A stretch of DNA of 64,000 nt from Hypoxylon rubiginosum (lineage: Eukaryota > Ascomycota > Sordariomycetes > Xylariales > Hypoxylaceae). The position numbers and the translations under genes were made by a program. The notes beneath the pieces are model-generated. The model was not told where the DNA came from. It did not search any database and worked only from the letters and a program-made list of their open reading frames with translations. This document shows, one piece after another, positions 18,334-64,000 of this stretch. Where the stretch lies: positions 62,001 to 126,000 of the forward strand of contig CADCXA010000066.1 of NCBI GenBank assembly GCA_902806565.1, written 5' to 3'. How positions within the stretch are numbered: the first letter of the stretch is position 1; the number at the start of each line of letters is the position of its first letter.

Positions 18334-18879
18334 ATGGGGGGGATTCTCGACTGGGTCTACAGCTTCATGGGATTTTTCGGTCTACTTAAGAAGCAGACCA
18401 AGATCCTCATCCTCGGACTAAACAAGGCTGGAAAGTCGACATTACTAATGCAAATGGCTCACCGTAGGCCGGGAGGCCTCCAACCTACCATACATCCCAC
18501 ATCCGAAGAGCTAGTGATCCAGAGTGTCAGATTTGTGGCAGTTAATTTCGGTGGCTACCGGCAAGGCCGACATGTCTGGAGCGACCATCTCCAGGACGTT
18601 GCCGGAGTCATCCTCCTCGTCGACGCAGCGGATAAAAAGCGGTTTGTCGAGGTAAAGCCCCAGCTCGATGCTCTGCTGGCCACGAAGGAGATGCGGAAAA
18701 TTCCGATCGTGGTGTTAGGAAACAAGGTTGAGCAACTGCACGCCGTCTCAAAGGAGGAACTGCGCCACGAGCTCGGCTTGGGGCGCATCCGTGGTCGGCC
18801 TATTGAGTTGTGTATGTGTTCCCTCGCTTTGAGGCTGGGCGATGGGGAGGCATTGCGATGGCTTGCAGATCATATTTAG
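18334..18879 (+). CDS. Divergent, intronless Sar1-like small GTPase
   Basis: Single exon, 181 residues, ATG at 18334 in context CAAGATGG. The frame is Sar1-like throughout: an amphipathic N-terminal helix (ILDWVYSFMGFFGLLKK), P-loop GLNKAGKS (28-35), switch I LQPTIHPTSEEL (49-60) and a C-terminal ELCMCS/RWL end. Key positions differ from the COPII GTPase Sar1. The Asp of the DxxG motif is Asn71, the catalytic His after GG is Tyr75, the NKxD motif reads NKVE (130-133), and a short loop near residue 150 is missing. No intron is present. It may be an old retrocopy or paralogue with altered or no GTPase activity; genuine Sar1 must be elsewhere. True function unknown. Confidence 0.82.
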   Translation: MGGILDWVYSFMGFFGLLKKQTKILILGLNKAGKSTLLMQMAHRRPGGLQPTIHPTSEELVIQSVRFVAVNFGGYRQGRHVWSDHLQDVAGVILLVDAADKKRFVEVKPQLDALLATKEMRKIPIVVLGNKVEQLHAVSKEELRHELGLGRIRGRPIELCMCSLALRLGDGEALRWLADHI

Positions 18880-19214
18880 TTTGGAAAATGAAGGTGATGG
18901 AGGTTCTCCTTGAAATTGTCACAGCCTACCACGGCGGAAGTACATGTACCTATCCAGAGCTTCAAGTAGGACAGCATAGCCACTTGATGGTTGAGTGGCG
19001 ACCAGTTACAATACACATCCTTCTGCAGGCTAGAGGCCGAGACCGAAACGCCGACCCCCTTCAGCCCCGAGGTAATCTGCCTGATCAAACTGGACTTCTA
19101 CCCAGCTTCTTGAAACCCCGCTCCCCAAAAACCACCATCTTTCTTTCGTTCGGCGCGCTGCAATGTGGTATCCATACCTTTCATGATACACGCAGCGACA
19201 TAATACATTACAGG
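18880..19214. other. Intergenic, no gene seen
   Basis: About 335 bases between the Sar1-like and the ankyrin-type genes, on the same strand. One frame is open but lacks protein character. Confidence 0.45.
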
Positions 19215-22200
19215 ATGGCCGATCCCGTCGGTATCACAGGTACTGCAGTCGGCATAGTATCACTATGTCTTCAAGTGTACAGCGGCTTAAAGGGTTACCT
19301 TGATGACTACAGAGGTCGCAACGAATACGTTCGCAAGGCTTTGGCAAATCTCGACAAGTTACGAAGACTAATAAGCGTGGTCGAATCTGTCATTCCAGCC
19401 TTGAGAAATGGCCATTATACACCGAGCCAGACTGTAGTGCTGTGTCTGCAAGACTGCGAGGTTCAAATAAAATCCCTAGATACGGAGCTTCAGAAGTATA
19501 ATAGACCTGCTACCAACGACCTAAAAGGGAAACTCAAAGAGACGATGAGAAGCTTGGAATTCCCTTTAGCTCGTCCTGAATTAGAGAGATTAGCTTCCAA
19601 TCTTGATCGGATCAATAGTCTGATCACGGTTGCGCTTCAGGCGCTCGAGTTGTATGTCGCCAGTTCTCACCTACCTTCGTCTATTTGCATCTTTTTTTAC
19701 AATTTGGTACTAATAAAATATAAAGGCATATTCAGTCGACTAATCAGGACCATCTAAAAGACCTTGGTGACTCTATCCGAGCGGCAGTGGTTGATATAGC
19801 AACCATCCAAGCCAAAGTTGACGAGATTCAATCGAGAGGAGCTGCTCTAGAAGCATGTGTGGGCAGCAATCAAACTGCCATCACGGAGATATCTCGAGAT
19901 CTACACGGGCTATCGCTTGTAGCCACCGAGATCCGGTCCTCAGTGCCGCAGATCAACCAAATCCAGGTCAACACCTCTGCCAGCATAGATATTCTACGCG
20001 ATATATCCTCGGGTTATCGGCTACAGCAACTAAATTCAATAACTCATGAGGAAAGGCTGAATGAGTTGAAACATGCCATCATCTCCGCCAACGAAAACTC
20101 GCCTGGAGAAAGGCTCTTTCAAATGCTGATGTCAAAACCTGATGTCCTCAAGAGCTGGCAAGATGACATTACCACAATTAGACATGCCTCATCCAATATA
20201 TCAACGGACAACGCACTACAATCCAGTCAATCTAGAAAGAAATACCAACTTGGTGCGAAAACTGGTAGTTGTGGATGTCGATACCGTCGTCGCATAAGTC
20301 GACAGTCGTCCAGCTGGCTCTCCTTCACGCGTTTCAACGAGTCGATTGTTGCTTTCCATCACGAGCCTGGATGCTCCATGTACGGAAACACCGAAGACAA
20401 TCGCGAACGCACGGTCGGTATTATATTTACAGGATTGCATCGATTACTCAACATCGCGGTTTGTGCCAGTCTAACTAGGTGTAATGGTGCCGGTGGTGCC
20501 AGCATCAGCCCAACATTTCGATACTATGCAATGGTAGATAGCAAACGATCTCCTGCATTCCGCATTGTAAAGACTATGTCATTTGGTATTATTCATATTA
20601 ATTATCTTCTGAGAGACCAAATTATGGACAATGCAATTACACAGGCGTGCCAACAGATCATTCGCGTTGCAATATCAAAATTGCAACGCGTTTTTACTAA
20701 CAGATCGTCATTACCAACCGATATTAATCAATACGGGTGGACACTAATTGAATCATTCGTTCACAATGTAAGTATTATGACAATATTTACATGCTTGCAC
20801 GATATTAATGGTAGCGAATAGGATATCTTTCAGGGGGAGCCATTGAGAGTACCAAGCGACATCCCGGTGATTGAGGCCCTATTACTGGGCCTACTAGAAC
20901 TTGGTATCCCCAGCATGAGCAACTCGTTGCATATACGGTACAAGTATGTAAGAGAAATCGGTATAAACTTACAGGCCAGAATGACTAATTTTTTCAGGTC
21001 TCCTCTAGTAGACGTCATCCGTTTTCAACGAGACATAACGGCAAAAAGGGGACCAGTATACGACAAGAAGATAGCTACATTAGTTTTTCAGAGTCGGCCT
21101 GAATACTATACTATAGCGGTAAACTGGTATATATTTTGCAATCCAACCGCCCGAAAGTGCCTGGCTGAAGTTGAATGCATTCAAGAGGGTGAGCATACCA
21201 ATTCTGTTAAACAGATAATATGCACGTACTAAGTCTCTACTAGCATTTGGTCTTGACGATCCCCTTTGTATAGCTCTCCTAAGAAAAAATGAGCTTATGG
21301 TAGAACGTGCCCTCCGATCCCACCCAACATCATCGGACTCTTTGATGTGGAATGGCATTTCGGCGGTTCACCTTGCGGTTTTCTGGCCGAGGGGACTTGA
21401 ATTACTCTTTCATTTCTGTCCAAACGTCGACTTGAATATGAAATGTAGCAGACGCGCACCATTATATTTTGCGTTGTGCGGGAGTCGTGACGAGGCTTGC
21501 GAGGAGCAAAGCGACACATTATGCAATACCTGCCCTTGCGCTGAATCAGTAAAGGTTCTACTAGAGCATGGGTGCCGTGCTGATGCTAGGTTTGAATTCT
21601 ATAGCGATATAGGAAGCCCTCATGCTACTTACGCTTTCCTAAGTCATATTAAATCATGGCGGGTGCGACTAATGGAAATAGCGCGGCACGAGCTTTGTGA
21701 GACTGAAATGTCCGATATCAGTTTTTGCAACTCATCGGTTTTAGACCACTCAGCACCAAAGGTAATTCGGAAACTCGAGGCCAGAGGTATCTTCCCATCT
21801 CAAGAGTTGCAACTGGATCCCCGAAGTATTCGTCTTTCGCCACTATCATATGGGTTCGAATCAAGCTCAATCTATCATGTCCTACGCCGTGTTTCTAGCA
21901 TGGAGATCGCCTTTAGATTAGGATTCAGAGACATCGATGTGTTCTATCAGTCAGAAACACCCGTCATGAGGAAAAGCCTTCCTTTGTATTGCTGCGAGTG
22001 GTTCCTTGATCATGGGGCGAGCATCACCAACCTAATGCCATCAGCTCCGAACCTGGCTTATTCTGAGAAAATCCCGCTTTGGACAGTTGCCCATTTTATA
22101 ATGTCTCGAGTCGAAAGATACAGTGAATCGGAAGATTTAAGAGATCGACTTGTACTTAAACTATGTGGCTTGGACATAGGTGATGGCTGCGATTGCGGCT

Positions 22201-46649: not shown

Positions 46650-49600
46650 TCAATATATCCAGCCAATCCGGCGGTGTAGGTCAAGATCGTACTGGACCTC
46701 AAGGTCGTGCACCTTGTCCTCCAGCCATGTCTCGTTATCCGCGCGAGGGTCTTGCCTCAGGAGATCGGCGAGCTGCAGCGCTGTCCTGCGCTTGATATTG
46801 TCATGGTCGATATCTACGTAGGCTTCTGTGCGATGGAGGATATTCCTCAGCTCTATCTCAGCCTCATCGTACAGGCTCTGGTGTGCTAGATTCGTGGCCT
46901 TATGACTGCGTACGCGCAGCACGTCCGGGTGGTCGGCGCCCAGTGTGGCGTTGAGGATGACGAGGCACTTTTCGTAGACCCCGCCGGCATGATCGTAGCG
47001 ACCTTGCATGTCGTAGACCTGACCCAGCTGCGACCAGCACTTCTGCGTAGTAGGATGTTCACGGCCAAGGCGTGCCAAGTGGTTGCGCAGTGCTCGGTTG
47101 AAGAGCTCCTCCGCGTCATCATATTTGCCTTGTTTCAGGCGGATCGAGGCCAGGATCTCGAAAGCCTCGGTTGTTTTAACGTAGTTAGCGCCGGCTGTGT
47201 TTTCGTACGACAGCAAGACACGTCTTATGTTAGCCTCCGCTTCGTCGTAGAACCCGACTTCCACTAGGTTCTTAGCAAGCTCCTGCACAGCCTCAAGCGT
47301 GCTTAGATGCACGAGCCCAAAGCGCTGTTCTTGTATAGCCGCGATTTGCTTCGAGAGGTCAAGTTCTTCCTCGGAGTTAGATTCCTCGTGGGCTATTTTT
47401 CTTAGCAGACGCAGCGCTTCGATGTCTGTCTCGTCGCTCGGGGATTGCTCTTCTAATATCGACAGAGTCGAATTCGGCAATGCGCCCACACCTAGATTAG
47501 CAAGTTCTCCGCATATTGCTTCAGCTCGAATGCTATCACCCGATATACGACGAGTTATGGCGAGGCGCATCTTTGTATTTCGGAGCGCAGAGTTAGTTCC
47601 TTCATTCCGACTAACCTGCAGATCATAGAATACGATTGCATCCTTGATCCGACCCTGTCTTTCACATATGCGACCCATCATGTCCAAGTCGATTGCCCAA
47701 TCGTAGGACGACGGACTATAGGCCTTGACGAAATTATGACAGCGGGACATGACAGCCGCGATGTCACTCTCGGCAAACGACGTATCGACTGCCTTGTCCC
47801 TACCTCGTACCTCTTGTAGTGAGTTTGTAACTGACAACGTCGACTCACAAGCCAGCTGACTGGCAGATCGACGTTGATCATCGGTGAAGAGGCGAAGGCC
47901 ACATTGAAGAACTATATCCTGGGTAACTAGATATCTTTCATCCTCGGTGAGGGCTACCAGCGAATTCTCTTCAAGTTCCTTGATGGCTGCCATCGAATCT
48001 CCAGCTAGAGCTAGTTAGTCGCGCATGGATGTCTAGATCGGTGACAACTCACGACAGCTCTCTCTAAATGACTTAGACAAGAAAACCGATAGACAGACTG
48101 ACTCCATTGAGAGAACACAGCAGACTTCAAATATGCGAAGCGAGAGGGTCTGTTGAAGTTTGTCACTAGTAGGAACCTTGTTGATGGTATTCTGTAATAC
48201 GTCTTCGACCTTGGTAAGTCCGTATTTCAAAGAAGCGGGTGGCTTCCCTTTTTCGGCACTTGACGAGAGTCTCAAGCGCCGCATATATTCTTGTAAGGTT
48301 ATTCGCGTTGACGATATATAAGAAGCAGCGCTACTGAGTGCTACCGGGATGTATTTGAGGGCACTCGACAAGTCGTTAAGGTCGCGCTCTTAATTCATCA
48401 GCGACACGAAAACGTAAGTAGAAAGGGAGACAGATACAGACCATTGAACTGCGAGAAACCCGTGGAAGCCCGTAAGAGTGATAAGGACTCATCAGGACTA
48501 AATGGACCCACTCGATACTTTTTGGCGAAGCTCCATTCCACTGGCTCTCGCGAAGTAATGATGCAGTGACCGTGAACGCATGTTGTATTAGGGATGAGTT
48601 TCGCAATATCGGGGTCATCCGGAGAAAGCTCAAGATTGTCCAATACCACTAGCCATGTAGAATTCTCTTTACTCTGAAACCACTCCATCACTGCGCCAAT
48701 CGTTAAACGTAGCTGGTTCTCATCGAGTTCCACGTTAGACGAGGAGTCAGTTAAGATACGGAGCGCCGTGATAGAACTGGGGCTATGAGGCTGTCGAAGA
48801 AGCATGCGCGCAATGTTTACCAGGCCCTGTTCGATGGAATGCCGACTCGTAGCGGGAATCCAGAAGATAGAAGAAAAATGCTCTCGATTTGCGTAGGCAA
48901 ATTCTCGAGCAATCTCGGTCTTCCCTATGCCGCGCGGCCCATGGAGGTTGACAACTGCACATGTGCTAGGACAAGGGCGCGAACATTCCTCGAGGAGCTC
49001 CTCACGGAGGAAACTGATTTCTTCTACTCTACCGATGAATCTTTGATTCCGAGGTGGAATATTAGCCTGGATGCGAAAGTCATCTTGTTCGACATTCTCT
49101 ATAGTTTGGTCTTCTGCTGAGAACTGTTAGCATTTCTTATCAAATGATTTAGGGGTAGCGCTTATAATACCTTCTTCAACCCGTATCATTTCCATGTACC
49201 TCTTCGAGTTCATTTCTTCTTCTGTATAACTGTTACTTTTGCTGCTTTGCTATACCGGCGCTCTATACAGGCTGACTTTACCTTTGCTCCTTGTGTGCCT
49301 TCTCCAATTTTCTTGCGCTCGCTTGTTCGCTTCGTGACATAGACCCAAGATTTCATCACAGACCTTTCGATAATCTCGATTGTCGCGGTTGTTGAATCGA
49401 CACATGTTCGCGTGGTCTGCATCGATGACATCGACTCTGTCTCCATATGGTTGACGTCTATTCGTAGGTTTTGGCACAATCTTGCACTAGTCAGTCTCGC
49501 TGATGTGCATAAAGATCGCTGGGTTCGCATACCATGCCTGCCATAGGCGTTGGTTTTCCCTCGTAATACGAGACTATTGAGATATTATCACTTAACGCTT

Positions 49601-50357
49601 TGAATGGCTGCAGCCGGTTCTGCAAGCTCAGGCTCTGCTTATCCAAATGCTTAGCTAGACTTGGATTGCCTGTTTTAGTTTGCTCGATGATACTGGCTAG
49701 AGTTTTCTGCCAGGTGTACCGTTCCCCTCTCGACATTGATCCGGCGTGGGGAGTGCCCAAGAAGACAATTCCAGTAGTAGAAACCGAAACAGCCAAGTGG
49801 TCGGATCCTTTGGCTTGACTGGAAAAGATAAGAGCGCTTTTTATGACGACACCTCCAAGACTATAGCCTACGAATATCAGTGGCCGGCGAGGGCAGTCCT
49901 TGCGAACGTCTGCCAGAGCCGAGAGCAGTTGCTGGGAATGGCGATAGAGAGTTCTTTGGGCCAGGTATTCTGGCGTCGGAGCAATGGATTTGTACCCGTA
50001 TGACAGTATGCGCACACCGATATGGTCTGCTTGGGCATCTTTGGGTAGGAAGTCGGCCGGCCAGACGTTGGCCTCTCCTGAGTCCTGAGCAGCCCATTTC
50101 CACGTCTGAATGCGATCTCCACCGAGGCCATGAACGAAGCAGATGCTATGTATCCCTCCTAGTCAATAATGGATCTGGGCGATCGAAGGTCTAGTTCTAA
50201 CTCACTCGATATCCGGGCTATCGGGTTTGTGGAGTTCAACAATCGCATTGTCGCCATCGAGCTGTTGAGCCTTCCGCCGCATTCGCCATAGCGACGGGAC
50301 TAGTAGCGTAGACGTAAGTCCCCCGATGCCCAGAATAGCGCCTGTAATATCAGCCAT
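46650..50357 (-). CDS. STAND receptor: alpha/beta-hydrolase (SesB-like), NB-ARC, TPR
   Basis: Six exons: 50206-50357, 49533-50145, 49282-49486, 48442-49113, 48053-48388 and 46650-48004; frame kept throughout, 1110 residues. N-terminus: short hydrophobic stretch, then a lipase/esterase-like domain (ICFVHGLGGD, nucleophile elbow GYSLGG at about 144, FLGTPHAGS at about 175). Middle: NB-ARC with P-loop LHGPRGIGKTEIA (about 380), Walker B WLVVLDN (about 476) and CIITSRE sensor strand (about 507). C-terminus: TPR array from about 830 (AEANIRRVLLSYENTAG; AEELFNRALRNHLARLGREH; GGVYEKCLVILNATLG). Fungal NLRs of this plan sense non-self and can trigger regulated cell death; some use lipase-type effectors. 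Exons 4-5 use an unusual GTCTGT donor. Ligand unknown. Confidence 0.88.
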
Positions 50358-55578: not shown

Positions 55579-56520
55579 CTATGCGTACAATGCAACATCA
55601 TCATCGGAGTCTTCGTCATTGGCTTCCTCGGCGAGCTCGTTCAACCGTTGGTCGCTGGAGTCGAGGTTACCCCCGAGGATGACCTCTTGGTCGCCGGGGA
55701 TCCTGGTGGCCGGGAGCGAAACAGTCATGGTTTGCGGGTGGATCAGCTCGCTCGAGATTTCGATGTCGTCCTCCGTGGTCCTCTTAGGCCGGAAGACCGA
55801 CGTCAGCCCCGACAGCAGCCCCGACTCGCGCTTCCGCGTCATCTGTATGTATCCGCACGCCACCACAACCTCGCCATCGTAGGTGCCCTCGGTCTCGGAC
55901 AGCCTGGTGCTGGAGGACGACAGCTCGCCTCTCAGGTCCGCGGTGCGAGGGGGTGCGTGTAGGGCCTCGCTGGGTATCTCGAGCTCTACGCCGGTCTCGC
56001 GCGACTGGCTGTGCTGGACGTTGAGACTCATGTCCATGGCGCAGATGATGCTGGTAATGATGCCGAGCTTCCCCTTGGGGTTCTTGTTGAAGTACGTGAT
56101 GATCGGTTCTGCGTATTCGCGGTGTTTTAGCAACTGCTCGATCCGATGGGGCGCCTGGTCCATAGTCAAGCGGCGGAAACCTGGGATCGAGGCGTTCCTC
56201 TCGTTCGAATTGTTTGTAGAATGAAATAGCGCAAGTGCTTTACTCAGAGCTACTTTGGCGTCACGCCCCCTGGCACTCCTAAGGAGCGTCGTGGCCTCTT
56301 TCGCCTTGATTCCTTGTGGATAGAGCAACTCGTCAAGCTTGCGAAGATCTGGACCTTCGGGCGGCAAGTGGGGGAAAATGTGCCCTTCAGTTGGCCGCTT
56401 CAGGGGATTGTCCTCATCTTCTGGCTTGGCGGACGTGAAGGGTACCGCCCGGCCTAGAAGATGGTTGACCTTGTCCTGCGTCGCAACCTCGGAGAGAAGA
56501 AAATAAGATTTGGGTGCCAT
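55579..56520 (-). CDS. Gasdermin-like candidate (fungal RCD-1/HET-Q1 type)
   Basis: Single exon, 313 residues, ATG at 56520, starting MAPKSYFLLSEV. There is no signal peptide. Residues 1-55 contain a SYFLLSEV strand, LLGRAVPF and a Pro/Asp-rich loop; residues about 140-185 hold strands with alternating polarity (KLGIITSIICAMDMSL) and about 218-232 another (EVVVACGYIQMT). The C-terminal 60 residues are acidic and low in structure (ending EEANDEDSDDD). Length and strand plan fit fungal gasdermin-like pore formers, whose C-terminal tail is removed by a protease to start cell death. The divergent neighbour at 57841 encodes a CHAT protease, a known fungal gasdermin partner type. Recognition is by pattern and context; a different family is possible. 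Confidence 0.5.
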   Translation of the reverse strand: MAPKSYFLLSEVATQDKVNHLLGRAVPFTSAKPEDEDNPLKRPTEGHIFPHLPPEGPDLRKLDELLYPQGIKAKEATTLLRSARGRDAKVALSKALALFHSTNNSNERNASIPGFRRLTMDQAPHRIEQLLKHREYAEPIITYFNKNPKGKLGIITSIICAMDMSLNVQHSQSRETGVELEIPSEALHAPPRTADLRGELSSSSTRLSETEGTYDGEVVVACGYIQMTRKRESGLLSGLTSVFRPKRTTEDDIEISSELIHPQTMTVSLPATRIPGDQEVILGGNLDSSDQRLNELAEEANDEDSDDDVALYA

Positions 56521-57840
56521 GTTAGACTGTCGGACTGTTGTAGACTGGATAGCCAGGCAATGAGAAAACGGGGCTTGATACGGGGTTATGTATGTCTCAA
56601 TTGGAGAAATATTTGAGGCTACCTACATCAGGCTCCCAGGCTCCAGGCCTGTATTATACGGTGACATAATGCATCACTTGGTGCAAGGTGGGAGCCCTCA
56701 GTCAGCTACAGCTATAGGCGTTTTCCAGTGCGCCGCATTGCGCCTCAATATCGCCAATCGCCACTCGTGACTCGTGACTCGACACGGCAGACAGGCTCGA
56801 AAGCAAACAAGACTCGATAATTTAGAATTCAGCCCCCAATGACCCGTCCGCAAGAATAAATCAAGGCATCCGTCATCGTAATTTGACATATGCTAAACTG
56901 CTAAAGAACTGCAGTACTTAGCGAGACAACTAGCCCAATGAAGTTGAACATGTACGGTCTACTATTAGTCTATTATTCGTTCTGGCAAAGGAAAACATGG
57001 ATGACAAATTAAGCGGTACTTTCTAAGTGGTTCTGGTTCGCTCACGGTCCGAGCCTTACCTAGGTACATATATACCTATACATATGGAGTATCATATGTG
57101 GAGTATTCAAGGGGGTTAAAAGGTGGTTTCGGTATACCGCTGTAATACCGGCGTCGGGGAACGCTGCAGGCATGTTGTGTTCAACCCGCGCAAGTACCTC
57201 TGATTGGTATCCGTCTCTTGTGATCTATCATAGATAACCCCGCATAAGATAGCGGTGCCTTAGGGATAGCATTGTGGACGGTAAACTCCCGTATAGTCCG
57301 GAATTTATATCATCTACGAAGATGTTATGCATGTCTAGTACGTACGTATGTACCTTATACCCAGGTATGTTAAATGCCGGAACACTTATACTCAATCGCG
57401 ACGAGACTTGAACAGACAGGTAACAATATGTTTTTACTTTTTAAAGACTGAAAGGATGACACGGGCCGCGACCCACAACTCCATCTATCGCCTACGCCTA
57501 CAGCAATTTCGATTTCGCTTACTGCCTGCACCTATATGTCACCTATATAGGTATGTAGGGGGTAGACTAGTCACACTATAGATACACTATAGATGTAACT
57601 ATGCGTAACATTTAGCGAGAAGCTCCAACTCAGCCGCAACCCAGCCGCTGTTTGGGGGCAGAACCAGGCCCTTCTCCAAAACGCCTTGAGCCTCCAAGCT
57701 ACCTCTACAGTTACCTCTACAGCTTCTGTAATTACCTTTTCATCTTTGCATCCTCGTGAAAAAGGAACCATAGGCGAACTGGTTGAGTCCGTGATGCAAT
57801 TTCCTGATATGTCTATATCGTCCTGTCTGTCACATTTGCA
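56521..57840. other. Divergent promoter between gasdermin-like and CHAT genes
   Basis: About 1.3 kb shared 5' flank, allowing joint regulation of the two genes. It contains a TACCTAGGTA copy at 57057-57066 and ATAT/ATAC-rich runs near 57070. No gene seen. Confidence 0.5.
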
Positions 57841-60356
57841 ATGAGCCGGGGAACCTATGAGCCGACAGTAACCACACCTCTTCTTAATGGTGTGCAAAGA
57901 GTACTAGCGGTACTAGCGGTACTAGCGACTGGTACTAGTAATGGCTTCGCAGTTCATGGTCTCGCCAACAGCTCTTCGAGACTTGACTACAACCCAAACA
58001 CGATCCCCAGGCCTACCTCATCCGTAGACAAGATTACGATTCAGGGCAAGGAGTACGTGGGATCGTGCGTCATTGACGGGAGACAGTACCGAAAGTGGCG
58101 AGTAGTTGTCGCAGTCGCTGGACAACCGGAGCGGGAGCCCATCGACCTAATTGATCCTTTCACGGCAGAGGAATACGACAAGAACGACAATCACAAGGTA
58201 CGACGGGGCAAACTACAATTTCTTGATCCAGATGTAAGTACTTCTTCTACTTGTACACGATGGATGCGTAGCTTTAAACACTTTCCCCTCGTGCTCTTAG
58301 CATAGTGCACATGGATTGACGCTAACTATCGCAGCGCGCCAAACGATACTTCAACGCATTGTTCAAGCAACTGAACCTGAGCTGCTGCCGGAGTACAGAT
58401 CGTCGTATCTCCATCCATGAGGATGTTACCAAAGTCAGCGAGTCCAGCGACTTTGCGAGCGTCCACTCGCTTCTATGGGAAGTTCTCGAACACCCTGATT
58501 TCTGGCCCTGTAACCAAGCCGACGGTGGCATACCCGTCAAGAGAGTCAGGTTGAGCCGGACGTTGAACGTCTTAAGCACCGGTTCGAATACTACGCCGGC
58601 AGGCCGCCAAGCATCCAGCATAGCAGCGACTCGGGCCGAGTATCGCGTCCTCCTGGTCATAGCGCGGTCCTTTAAGAAAGACAGCGACCAGAGATACGTC
58701 GACTATCGGCCAAATCTCATACAGTACGTATTTTCTGACGCAACCCTCACATTCCACCTAGTAACAGAACAGTATTGATAACTAGTTTTCATTAGGGGTC
58801 CGTTGCTTAAAATTGCACGGAAAGCGAAGCAAAGAGGGATCGCTCCCAAGGTGCATATCGATGTAGTACGGCCTGGGACCATTGAAGAGCTCGATGAGTA
58901 TCTCGATCCGAAGAGCGACAAGTCATACGACATAGTCCACTTCGACCTGCATGGGAAGATCGGACCCGTGAATCCAATCTCTAGATCACGGGGGGTCAGA
59001 GGCACGGGATTCCCAGCACAGGACGGTCAGACGCCCCTGGAGCGTCAGTGCTATCTCCGTTTCGCGAAGCCGTACGACCCGGAGCTTCTTCGGTTCAAAA
59101 GCGACGACGACGCGAGGGAAAAGCTCCTGACCGACGACACGTCGCTCATCGACGTCCCCGTGAAGCAGATCGCCGAGAAGCTTCAAGAGTGCCGCATCTC
59201 CAAGGTAGCCCTGAGCGCTTGTCTATCGTCTTACGCGCAGAGCCAGGTGTTCCTGAACATGTGCCACACGCTCCTCAGCCACGACGTGGCCCACGTGTCG
59301 GCCATGAGCTTCCAGATCCTGGAGAGCACGACCCAAGTCTACTATAGCGCATTTTACGACTCCCTCATTCTACAGGGCGAAGCCTTCCACGTTGCCGCGG
59401 CGCGTGGCCGCGAAGCCCTTCGCGCGAATAATAAACAGTACGGTCATGCGGTACTCCCTACTAATTACCACCGTTATCCCAGGAGTTTCAGTAACGAATG
59501 GTGGCGGAGCCCCCAAGTGCAATCTAGCCAGTTACCTCTGTTCGCCCTATATCTAACCCGATACGCCGTCGTCCTCTGCCTCCTCCTCGCGCTCGGCCTC
59601 ACGTACCTGTGGCTGCCGCTACGGTTCTTCTGCACGCTGTTACCCGTCGCGCTCTTCGTGGCGATGTCGGTTTGGGTGCTGACGACGAGCTGCATCAAGA
59701 AGCTCGCGCCGGTCGAGGAGCAGGCGCGCGAGCAAAAGCGGAGCGAGAAGTCGAGGTTCGAGGTCGACATCGAACACCTCGTCATCGAAGACCGCCTGAA
59801 GTCCGAAGCCAACCAGGGCGCCCTGTACGTGTGGAGCACGGACTACTCCAAGGAGCTCATCGACTGCGTGCACGACCTGGCGCAGACGTGGGTGCTCACC
59901 GGCTTCGTCGACGCCGTGGACATCGTGTCGGCGCGGGCCTTCTCGTGGACCCTCACGAGCCTGCCGCCCCTGCGCTGGCTCTGGACGCGGCGGTACCGCA
60001 GCGACCGCCAGGGCACCGTCGGGCGGCGGCGGCTGCTCGTGCTCGAGGGGTTCGACCGCTTCTACCCGAAGCACGCGCGGGACGGGGACCTCGGGGCCCT
60101 GCGCGCGGCGCTCGGCCGCATGGTGGCGTTCGTCGAGGGCTACGACCGCGACGACACGTACCTGCTCATCACGGGCTCGCACGACGAGGAGTGGTGGACC
60201 GACGGCCACCGGTACACCGACGAGCGCCTCATCAACACCATCCTCCGGGCCGTGCCGCACAACCACAACATCACGCCCGCGAGGAGGCACGTGCCGCGGT
60301 GGAGCCAGCAGGCCATGAGGAGACGTTGGTCGGCGCTTTGGAACGAGATGGTTTAA
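57841..60356 (+). CDS. CHAT-domain (caspase-like) protease with membrane anchor
   Basis: Exons 57841-58233, 58335-58723 and 58796-60356 (GTAAGT...CGCAG; GTACGT...CATTAG), 780 residues. The CHAT domain spans about residues 235-480: EYRVLLVIARSF, RPGTIEELDEYL, the catalytic His in DIVHFDLHG (His313) and catalytic Cys in VALSACLSS (Cys403), then AFHVAAARGREAL. After it come two membrane helices (about 515-561). A C-terminal domain with a Walker-B-like strand (RRLLVLEGFDRF) and TYLLITGSHDEEW follows. Residues 1-200 match nothing I know; a VLA triplet is encoded by three identical GTACTAGCG repeats. The family cleaves after specific residues; some activate gasdermins. The gene is divergent from the gasdermin-like gene and ends 145 bp from the HET gene. 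Confidence 0.88.
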
Positions 60357-60501
60357 TTGCCCCCCCTGTTTGTATTTTTGCATCTTGCATCTTGCATCTC
60401 TCGGGGAATATACTTGTTGATGATACCACTGGTGGCAAGCAATTATAACATAGCTACCTCCTCCTGCTTTTGTATATATATATAGGACTCAAAGGCCATG
60501 T

Positions 60502-62811
60502 TTAAACAATTTCAAGAGTTCGAATCTCGCAGTCGAGGAAAAACCCGACGGATAGAAAAGAGCCGCCGCTTGTCGGTGGCCCGAACGTCCCAACTCGAAC
60601 GTGCCCCTGGCCAGTCGGAGCGGGGTGAAGGATAAGTCCGTACGGCAGTTCCATGGTGGACCAACTGTCGTCCTCGTCGTCGGGTTCTTTTTCGGTGGCG
60701 GTTCCTACGAGAATAAGAATGAGGTCGCGCATGCGGTCCTCGCTCTGCTCCGAGGACCAGTCCAGGTCGTATTGTACCGCCCCGTTGGTATTCAGCTTCA
60801 GAAGGCAGATCCCAGTAGTTCGAGATATGGCAATCCATTCCGCTTCGGATAACGGACAGACATGTCCTGTTAAAGATAATACGGCAGCGGAAATCTCGCC
60901 GTACTCGTCGACGCCTCTGGGGGTCACCGTCACGTCAATACTCTCGCATTTAGAGTTGTACTGTAGAGGGTCGTCCCACATAGACAGCTCGCCAGCCCCG
61001 TGCGTAGATAACTCACCGCGGCATATCCAGCTCCAAGACGGTCCTATGTCGGAACAGTCCTGTAGCGCTTGCAGGAGGGAATCCAGAGTTCGATGCGGAG
61101 GGTCTTGAAGCCTCCAGAACAGCCCGCAGAGGAGGTCCTTCTTCCAGAGCCCCGCGACGTACGCGTCCTCCATAATTGAAGCGAAATAGCGAGCCAAGCC
61201 AGATAGTGCCGGGAGAGTGTCCGTCAGAAAGGTGATATTACGGGCCGAGTACGGTAGGGCGACGCGGACAGCCCAGACCTTGTACAGTTCCGTTTTATTG
61301 CGCGGGTCGGTAAGCTCGTCCAGAAATAATGTCTTCTGGAATTGTTTAGCCGTCCCAAAGAGTTCGGACCTGGCCTTATTCCGGCACATGAAATGAACGC
61401 CGGAGTTGGCGAAATATATTAAGCGTGAAGACATGACTTGTTCTTGAAACGTCCAGGCCCGCCGACTCCATCGGCAGTTCCGGAACTCTGTTTCGGTCCA
61501 GCTGATAGTCGAATGTCCACCGCCGTATATCGGGCGTCCCTCTACGTTAAAATGCCGACCCGCCGTCGACGACGAGAACACGAATGGGAGCTTGACGGTT
61601 TGGGGGCTCTTCGAGAGGAACCCTTCATCGCACGAGGTGGATGTGAGAGGGCAGATTGTCACGTACGAGCAACTGTATATCCTCTCCATTTGAGATGCTT
61701 CCCTCTCCCAATCCGCCCTGTCACCTTGTCTGATGCAGAGGGCGTCGATCCATATGTACTGGATTGATAAAGCCCTCGCTAAGACGACGAAATCTCTGTG
61801 CACGGGGGCTAGGCTATCGAGATGGATACTGCTTAACATCGAGGGCTCCGAGTCTTTCGTCAACTTGAACTGCTTTGAGGCCTGGATGGGATCGCCCCAG
61901 CAATAGCTAAGTGTCGCATAAGATACATCACGGCTAGTATTAGAGCTCTGTAGGCCATTTGTATGTATCACTCTACATTCGTTCTCGGTTATTTCGAGTA
62001 GCCTGGTGGGTAGGAACCGGGCCGGTCTTGGGTGCCGGCAGTCTTTCATACAACGTCCAATCTCGGATTGTAAAAAGGATATAGCATCTCCTCTCAGCGT
62101 GTCCCACTGAATCGGGTCCCGGAGAGCGAGCGTTGGAGAATATGGCTCTGCCATCAGTTAGCCTTTAATGTACGCGAGTCAACACAGCTCAGCCTTACTC
62201 AAATCAGACGTCAGAGGAAATCGCAAGCCGATATTGAAGTTATTCACGTTAAATTCCTTAGTAGACTCGGGTGACGGGTGACACTCGACGAAGAGAAACC
62301 AAACTCCGAACTTAGCATCTGGACTCTCGAACTGCGAGTCGTAGTCCCAGGAATATCGGATATGCAGCGGTAATCCTGGCTTGATAGGTGTAGACCGGCC
62401 GAGATTAAGTATCTCGCAAAACTCGACGGACTGAAGGGCGGAGCGAAGGAGTTGGCAGAATTCGCAGACCTTAGAGGACTGTAATAACTCGGGCAGTTCG
62501 GGATACGTAAGAACTTTTTGCATGTATAGGAGGAATTGTTCTACATAGAGAGGCCCTAGGGGGTTCAATGTAGGTGACCATTCCTTCCAGCTCTTTTGCT
62601 GGTCTGCTTCTGAGAGGGTCTGCGGCGTGAGGAACGGGAATCTCAATATTTTCTCACATGGATGGCATAAGCGTGATAAAGAGCCTACGGCATTTCGATG
62701 TTAGATGCGGTGGAGGGTTACAGTATGAGCAATAATTTTTCTTGCAGCATTACTGATCTCGCCGGCAGTGACTAATTGTAGTATTGAAAATAACCTACTG
62801 GGAGACGCCAT
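60502..62811 (-). CDS. HET-domain (heterokaryon incompatibility) protein
   Basis: Three exons: 62799-62811 (a 13-base first exon, MASP), 62199-62684 and 60502-62147; donors GTAGGT and GTAAGG; 714 residues. An N-terminal Cys pair (LCHPCEKIL) and CEFCQLLRSAL typical of HET proteins come first. The HET domain begins at about residue 243: VSYATLSYCWGDP, then IQYIWIDALCIRQ, WEREASQMERIYSCSYVTI, and later WSRRAWTFQEQVMSSRLIYF. HET domains drive cell death in vegetative incompatibility and often pair with NLRs or gasdermin systems. The gene is tail-to-tail with the CHAT protease gene. The tiny first exon is supported by frame and by normal splice signals but is the least certain part. Confidence 0.9.
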
Positions 62812-63387: not shown

Positions 63388-64000
63388 ATGGCGTCTCCTT
63401 CGGCTTCAATATGTCGCCTACGGACGCCCTTGCACCGGGCAATTTCCAGCTCCCTAAGCTTAAGCGCAACCAGATCTTACGCCACCGTCCCAACAAACAG
63501 CCCGGAACCTTCTTCTTCTTCCTCCGCCAAACCCGCCCGCCGGCCGACATACTTTAAAGACACGACGATAGCGTCGCTAGACGAATTCCTGCCCACGTCT
63601 TCGGCCGCGGCCCCCCTCGCGGCCACCGATGCCTACCAGCTGCGCACCGCCGAGGTCGGCCCCGCGTCGAACCGCCGCACCATCACGCGGCTGCCCGAGT
63701 GGCTCAAGACGCCTATCCCGGCCGGCAACGACAACTACAAGAAGATCAAGCAGGACCTACGAGGCTTAAATCTCCACACGGTGTGCGAGGAGGCGCGGTG
63801 CCCCAACATCAGCGAGTGCTGGGGCGGCAGCAACAAGAACGCCGCGACGGCCACCATCATGCTGATGGGCGACACGTGCACGCGCGGGTGCCGGTTCTGC
63901 AGCGTCAAGACGAACCGCAACCCGCCGCCCCTCGACCCGCACGAGCCCGAGCACACGGCCGAGGCCCTGGCCCGCTGGGGCCTGGGCTACGTGGTGCTGA
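63388..64000 (+). CDS. Lipoyl synthase, mitochondrial (partial)
   Basis: Starts at the ATG at 63388 and runs open to the window end, 204 residues visible. The first 35 residues are rich in Arg, Ser and Ala ([20 protein letters not shown]), a mitochondrial targeting sequence. The radical-SAM lipoyl synthase hallmarks follow: the auxiliary cluster motif [12 protein letters not shown] (C-x4-C-x5-C) and the SAM cluster motif CTRGCRFC (C-x3-C-x2-C), preceded by ATIMLMGDT. The enzyme inserts two sulphurs into octanoyl-E2 proteins to make lipoate for pyruvate and related dehydrogenases. The remainder lies beyond the window. Confidence 0.96.

What the first reader, a model, noticed from the sequence alone, without database searches (positions are those of the whole stretch)
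55579..62811. Possible gasdermin/CHAT protease/HET cell-death module
A gasdermin-like candidate (55579-56520, minus) is divergent from a CHAT protease with intact His313 and Cys403 (57841-60356, plus), which is tail-to-tail with a HET-domain gene (60502-62811). Established knowledge: many fungal gasdermin-like genes sit beside subtilisin or CHAT protease genes, and cleavage of the gasdermin tail starts membrane permeabilisation (RCD-1, HET-Q1/HET-Q2). What is unusual here is the third partner, a HET-domain protein, and the membrane anchor of the protease. The gasdermin identity is inferred, not proven.
Basis: partly seen in the sequence, partly recalled or inferred. Interest (0 to 1): 0.88.

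Follow-up and report, generated by a model that had tools for sequence, protein, structure and literature searches.

The report
Fungal gasdermin with membrane-anchored CHAT protease
[quoted passage not shown] that kind of pair is already known in fungi, but this protease looks tied to a membrane and fused to an unusual ATPase-like domain that seems to have lost its ATP site.

The parts
55579..56520 (-). gasdermin-like gene, single exon, 313 aa
   Evidence: ORF; 14 relatives; fold matches to gasdermins; prok_gasdermin profile E 0.0087
55729..56520 (-). predicted pore-forming domain, residues 1 to about 264
   Evidence: gasdermin rows align within model residues 1..269
55582..55728 (-). acidic C-terminal tail, residues 265-313 (net charge -11, 5.3 kDa): candidate inhibitory tail with a conserved VSLPxTRIxGDQE-like block and a DSDDDxxLYA-like end
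   Evidence: inhibitory role inferred
56521..57840 (.). 1.3-kb intergenic stretch between the two divergent start codons
57841..58233 (+). CHAT gene exon 1
58335..58723 (+). CHAT gene exon 2
58796..60356 (+). CHAT gene exon 3 (CHAT catalytic part, two hydrophobic segments, AAA+-like domain)
58950..58952 (+). catalytic His313 codon
   Evidence: invariant in 17 of 17
59220..59222 (+). catalytic Cys403 codon
   Evidence: invariant in 17 of 17
59532..59696 (+). two predicted transmembrane segments, residues about 507-561 (hydropathy only)
   Evidence: two windows of mean hydropathy about 1.5 or more in 15 of 17 members
59715..60353 (+). C-terminal AAA+/P-loop-NTPase-like domain without Walker A, residues 568-780
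   Evidence: model pLDDT 73; Foldseek and VIA matches; no GK[ST] at that place in 17 of 17
60502..62147 (-). HET gene exon 3 (HET domain); neighbour, probably not part of the module
   Evidence: no close relative beside the pair elsewhere
62199..62684 (-). HET gene exon 2
62799..62811 (-). HET gene exon 1

Best explanation
A two-gene regulated-cell-death module. The 313-residue protein is a fungal gasdermin: residues 1 to about 264 form the pore-forming domain, and the acidic last 49 or so residues hold it inactive. The divergently transcribed neighbour encodes a CHAT cysteine protease tethered to a membrane by two helices, with a C-terminal AAA+-like domain that has lost its P-loop and so probably serves as a sensor or assembly surface rather than an ATPase. 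On a trigger (unknown), the protease cuts the gasdermin in or near its tail; the freed domain oligomerises and permeabilises a membrane, killing the cell. Shown here: gene structures, catalytic residues, conserved linkage, hydrophobic segments, predicted folds. Inferred: cleavage, inhibition by the tail, pore formation, the sensor role, which membrane.
Confidence: 0.75

Rival explanations
1. The protein is a gasdermin but works without cleavage, like RCD-1, by partnering with divergent alleles; the protease has another substrate.
For: RCD-1 is the best Foldseek match and is activated without cleavage (passages of PMC12881547).
Against: RCD-1-1 and RCD-1-2 are 257 and 244 aa; this protein is 313 aa, with 49 residues beyond the matched fold that carry conserved motifs, and it travels with a CHAT protease.
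Confidence: 0.1
2. A three-gene module in which the HET-domain protein is a sensor or second effector.
For: Only 145 bp separate the CHAT and HET stop codons; [quoted passage not shown]
Against: A close relative of the HET protein was found only in H. rubiginosum; the other hits listed (best 120 of 289) are at most 40% identical, while the pair recurs across named Xylariales. At least 150 HET matches in the genome (206 candidates, 150 scored) give a 5-8% chance of one within 5-10 kb, before counting the local excess of three in the first 130 kb of this contig.
Confidence: 0.06
3. The 313-residue protein is not a gasdermin but another substrate or regulator of the CHAT protease.
For: Weak model, low TM-scores and sub-threshold sequence scores.
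Against: One family dominates the fold matches, the profile hit recurs in 10 of 15 members, and CHAT pairing is typical of fungal gasdermins (reviews).
Confidence: 0.09

Closest known systems
Fungal gasdermin/CHAT two-gene clusters (Clave et al. 2022, not read; known here through passages of PMC12881547 and PMC10197012)
   Same: Gasdermin-like gene beside a caspase-like CHAT protease gene; a tail of about the 5 kDa that HET-Q1 loses.
   Different: Annotated partners mostly carry WD40, ANK, TPR or NLR parts; here the protease carries two predicted membrane helices and a P-loop-less AAA+-like domain.
RCD-1-1/RCD-1-2 of Neurospora crassa
   Different: Shorter, activated without protease by the partner allele; no significant sequence match found here.
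HET-Q1/HET-Q2 of Podospora anserina
   Same: Gasdermin with a short tail and a protease.
   Different: HET-Q2 is a subtilisin-like protease and an idiomorph of HET-Q1; here a CHAT protease adjacent on the same contig.
Bacterial gasdermins (7n50, 7n51, 7n52)
   Different: Sequence similarity far below the family cut-off.
Fungal NLRs with an N-terminal CHAT domain
   Same: CHAT effector followed by an NTPase-like fold in one chain.
   Different: No Walker A, and two hydrophobic segments between the two domains.

Membership tests
Gasdermin | Gasdermin pore-forming fold | tested here: met
Gasdermin | Significant match to a gasdermin sequence profile | tested here: inconclusive
   prok_gasdermin E 0.0087, 10 of 15 members, best 0.0014, below the 100-bit cut-off; none in Pfam; hhalign with seven bacterial candidates not significant
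Gasdermin | Genomic pairing with a protease gene | tested here: met
Gasdermin | Pore formation, and release by cleavage of the tail | not testable with these tools
   needs experiment
CHAT protease | Catalytic His and Cys motifs | tested here: met
   HFDLHG with H313 and LSACLSS with C403, both invariant in 17 of 17; motif meaning recalled
CHAT protease | Match to Pfam CHAT PF12770 | tested here: met
   11 of 17 family members at E<=1, best 2.4e-7; P0030 and P0029 above the cut-off; the window protein itself none
NLR/STAND receptor | NTPase domain with P-loop (Walker A) | tested here: not met
Gasdermin-CHAT-HET module | HET gene conserved beside the pair | tested here: not met
   close relative only in H. 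rubiginosum, others listed at most 40% identical (best 120 of 289 hits); strain-level presence not tested

The most novel reading that the evidence does not exclude
A membrane-resident, nucleotide-independent gasdermin trigger: a CHAT caspase-like protease held at a membrane by a helical hairpin and controlled by a pseudo-AAA+ domain that assembles or senses without ATP, cutting a gasdermin right where it inserts. This would be a one-protein membrane counterpart of an inflammasome, conserved across Hypoxylon and its allies.
Probability: 0.35. Interest if true: 0.72.

Novelty: new variant of a known kind. Interest (0 to 1): 0.52.

Why it matters
What activates the proteases that trigger fungal gasdermins is named a major open question (passage of PMC12881547), and the 18 architectures annotated so far cover only about a third of some 1500 such proteins (passage of PMC10197012). 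This family offers a concrete architecture to test: a membrane hairpin plus a P-loop-less AAA+-like domain. It also shows that gasdermins with no Pfam match can be proposed from gene pairing plus fold.

Tried and rejected
HET gene as third partner: rejected for want of conservation and for the high HET density.

Hydroxynitrile lyase similarity: E about 0.01 over 34-74 residues; rejected because none of the rows listed in the fold searches is such an enzyme.

Paralogues in the own genome: only the locus itself for both proteins, apart from a 28% hit at C22:81760-82083 with five stops, E 0.028, not found with P0014; treated as chance. Pfam CHAT in the own genome gave nothing, not even this gene, so it says nothing about other CHAT genes. 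prok_gasdermin in the own genome: nothing, not even this gene.

Profile-profile test against seven bacterial gasdermin-like ORFs: not significant; an unrelated pair, A1 against A2, gave a similar level (E 0.15). The viral structure library gave no match at or below E 1.4 (best row E 1.4). PADLOC: none for either protein.

The key paper (Clave et al. 2022, PMC8851545) is not held and was not read.

Full report
What is there. The window lies in a 48.3-Mb genome (C66:62001-126000), by its closest named relatives a Hypoxylon near H. texense and H. rubiginosum. The three genes stand as described. The 313-aa ORF is one exon. The CHAT gene has three exons and encodes 780 aa. The HET gene has three exons and encodes 714 aa, 711 of 714 identical to an H. 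rubiginosum protein.

The tail. The fold matches end at or before residue 269. Residues 265-313 (49 aa, 5.3 kDa, net charge -11) are variable in the middle but conserved at both ends: T264, M265, V267, P270, R273, G276 and G283 are invariant in all 15, as are L311 and Y312 in a DSDDDxxLYA-like end. HET-Q1 loses about 5 kDa when cleaved (passage of PMC12881547). That this tail inhibits and is cut is inference.

Linkage. Gasdermin-like proteins were found in 13 named fungi, 12 of them Xylariales by my own knowledge of the names. For ten independent 40-Mb genomes chance gives about 10^-17; related genomes are not independent, so this shows conserved linkage, not ten separate events. Misses: P0003, P0010, P0014 and the unnamed P0013 without a listed CHAT partner; P0021, P0025, P0030 and the unnamed P0017, P0022 and P0029 without a matching gasdermin contig. 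The database clusters at 90% identity, so some may be hidden. The two distance matrices correlate (r 0.88, Mantel p 1e-4, window plus 10 genomes, CHAT compared from residue 262 on), which common descent alone would also produce.

The HET gene. Apart from P0031 of H. rubiginosum, the hits listed are at most 40% identical (best 120 of 289 listed). No protein named from H. texense is among those 120, although its pair is 92-95% identical to the window's. The genome has at least 150 HET matches (150 scored of 206 candidates, some with stops), giving a 5-8% chance of one within 5-10 kb, and three lie in the first 130 kb of this contig. It is best seen as a neighbour in a HET-rich region.

Place among known things. 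Fungal gasdermin genes near CHAT proteases are established: 19% of fungal gasdermin genes lie within 10 kb of one, and one P. anserina pair was tested (passages of PMC10197012 and PMC12881547). A CHAT gene is also an allele of a heterokaryon-incompatibility locus in Aspergillus fumigatus (passages of PMC11138114). Searches led me to passages of six papers (those three, PMC11760362, PMC9815663 and PMC10907252). The passages I saw describe no membrane-anchored fungal CHAT protease with a P-loop-less AAA+-like part; a figure legend in PMC10907252 lists CHAT, transmembrane and NACHT or nSTAND parts among bacterial target proteins. No paper of the library holds both Hypoxylon and gasdermin. The library lacks most subscription journals and the key paper. 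Verdict: a new variant of a known kind.

Noticed in passing
46650-50162 minus: An NLR-like gene 5.4 kb from the gasdermin, with other open frames between: esterase-like exon (PF05057 5e-5), AAA_16/NB-ARC exon (4.7e-10) and TPR exon (2.3e-25), resembling SesB-like NLRs.
   Followed up: partly
18807-19757 plus: Weak hit (2.2e-4, below cut-off) to PF17111, listed as PigL_N and as Helo_like_N, an NLR N-terminal domain, in PMC9815663.
   Followed up: no
L099-L105: Seven unnamed bacterial genomes (7 of 58 in the phylum of G001; 0 of 9 in that of G002) carry gasdermin-like ORFs that all keep a Cys-Gly after an N-terminal hydrophobic stretch, as in lipoproteins (my reading); their profile hits solved bacterial gasdermin at E 2.4e-4, though L101 alone hits none.
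   Followed up: partly
   Followed up: partly
63388-64000 plus: Lipoyl-synthase-like gene running off the window end next to the HET gene (354 bacterial or archaeal stretches encode a relative; the name is recalled).
   Followed up: no
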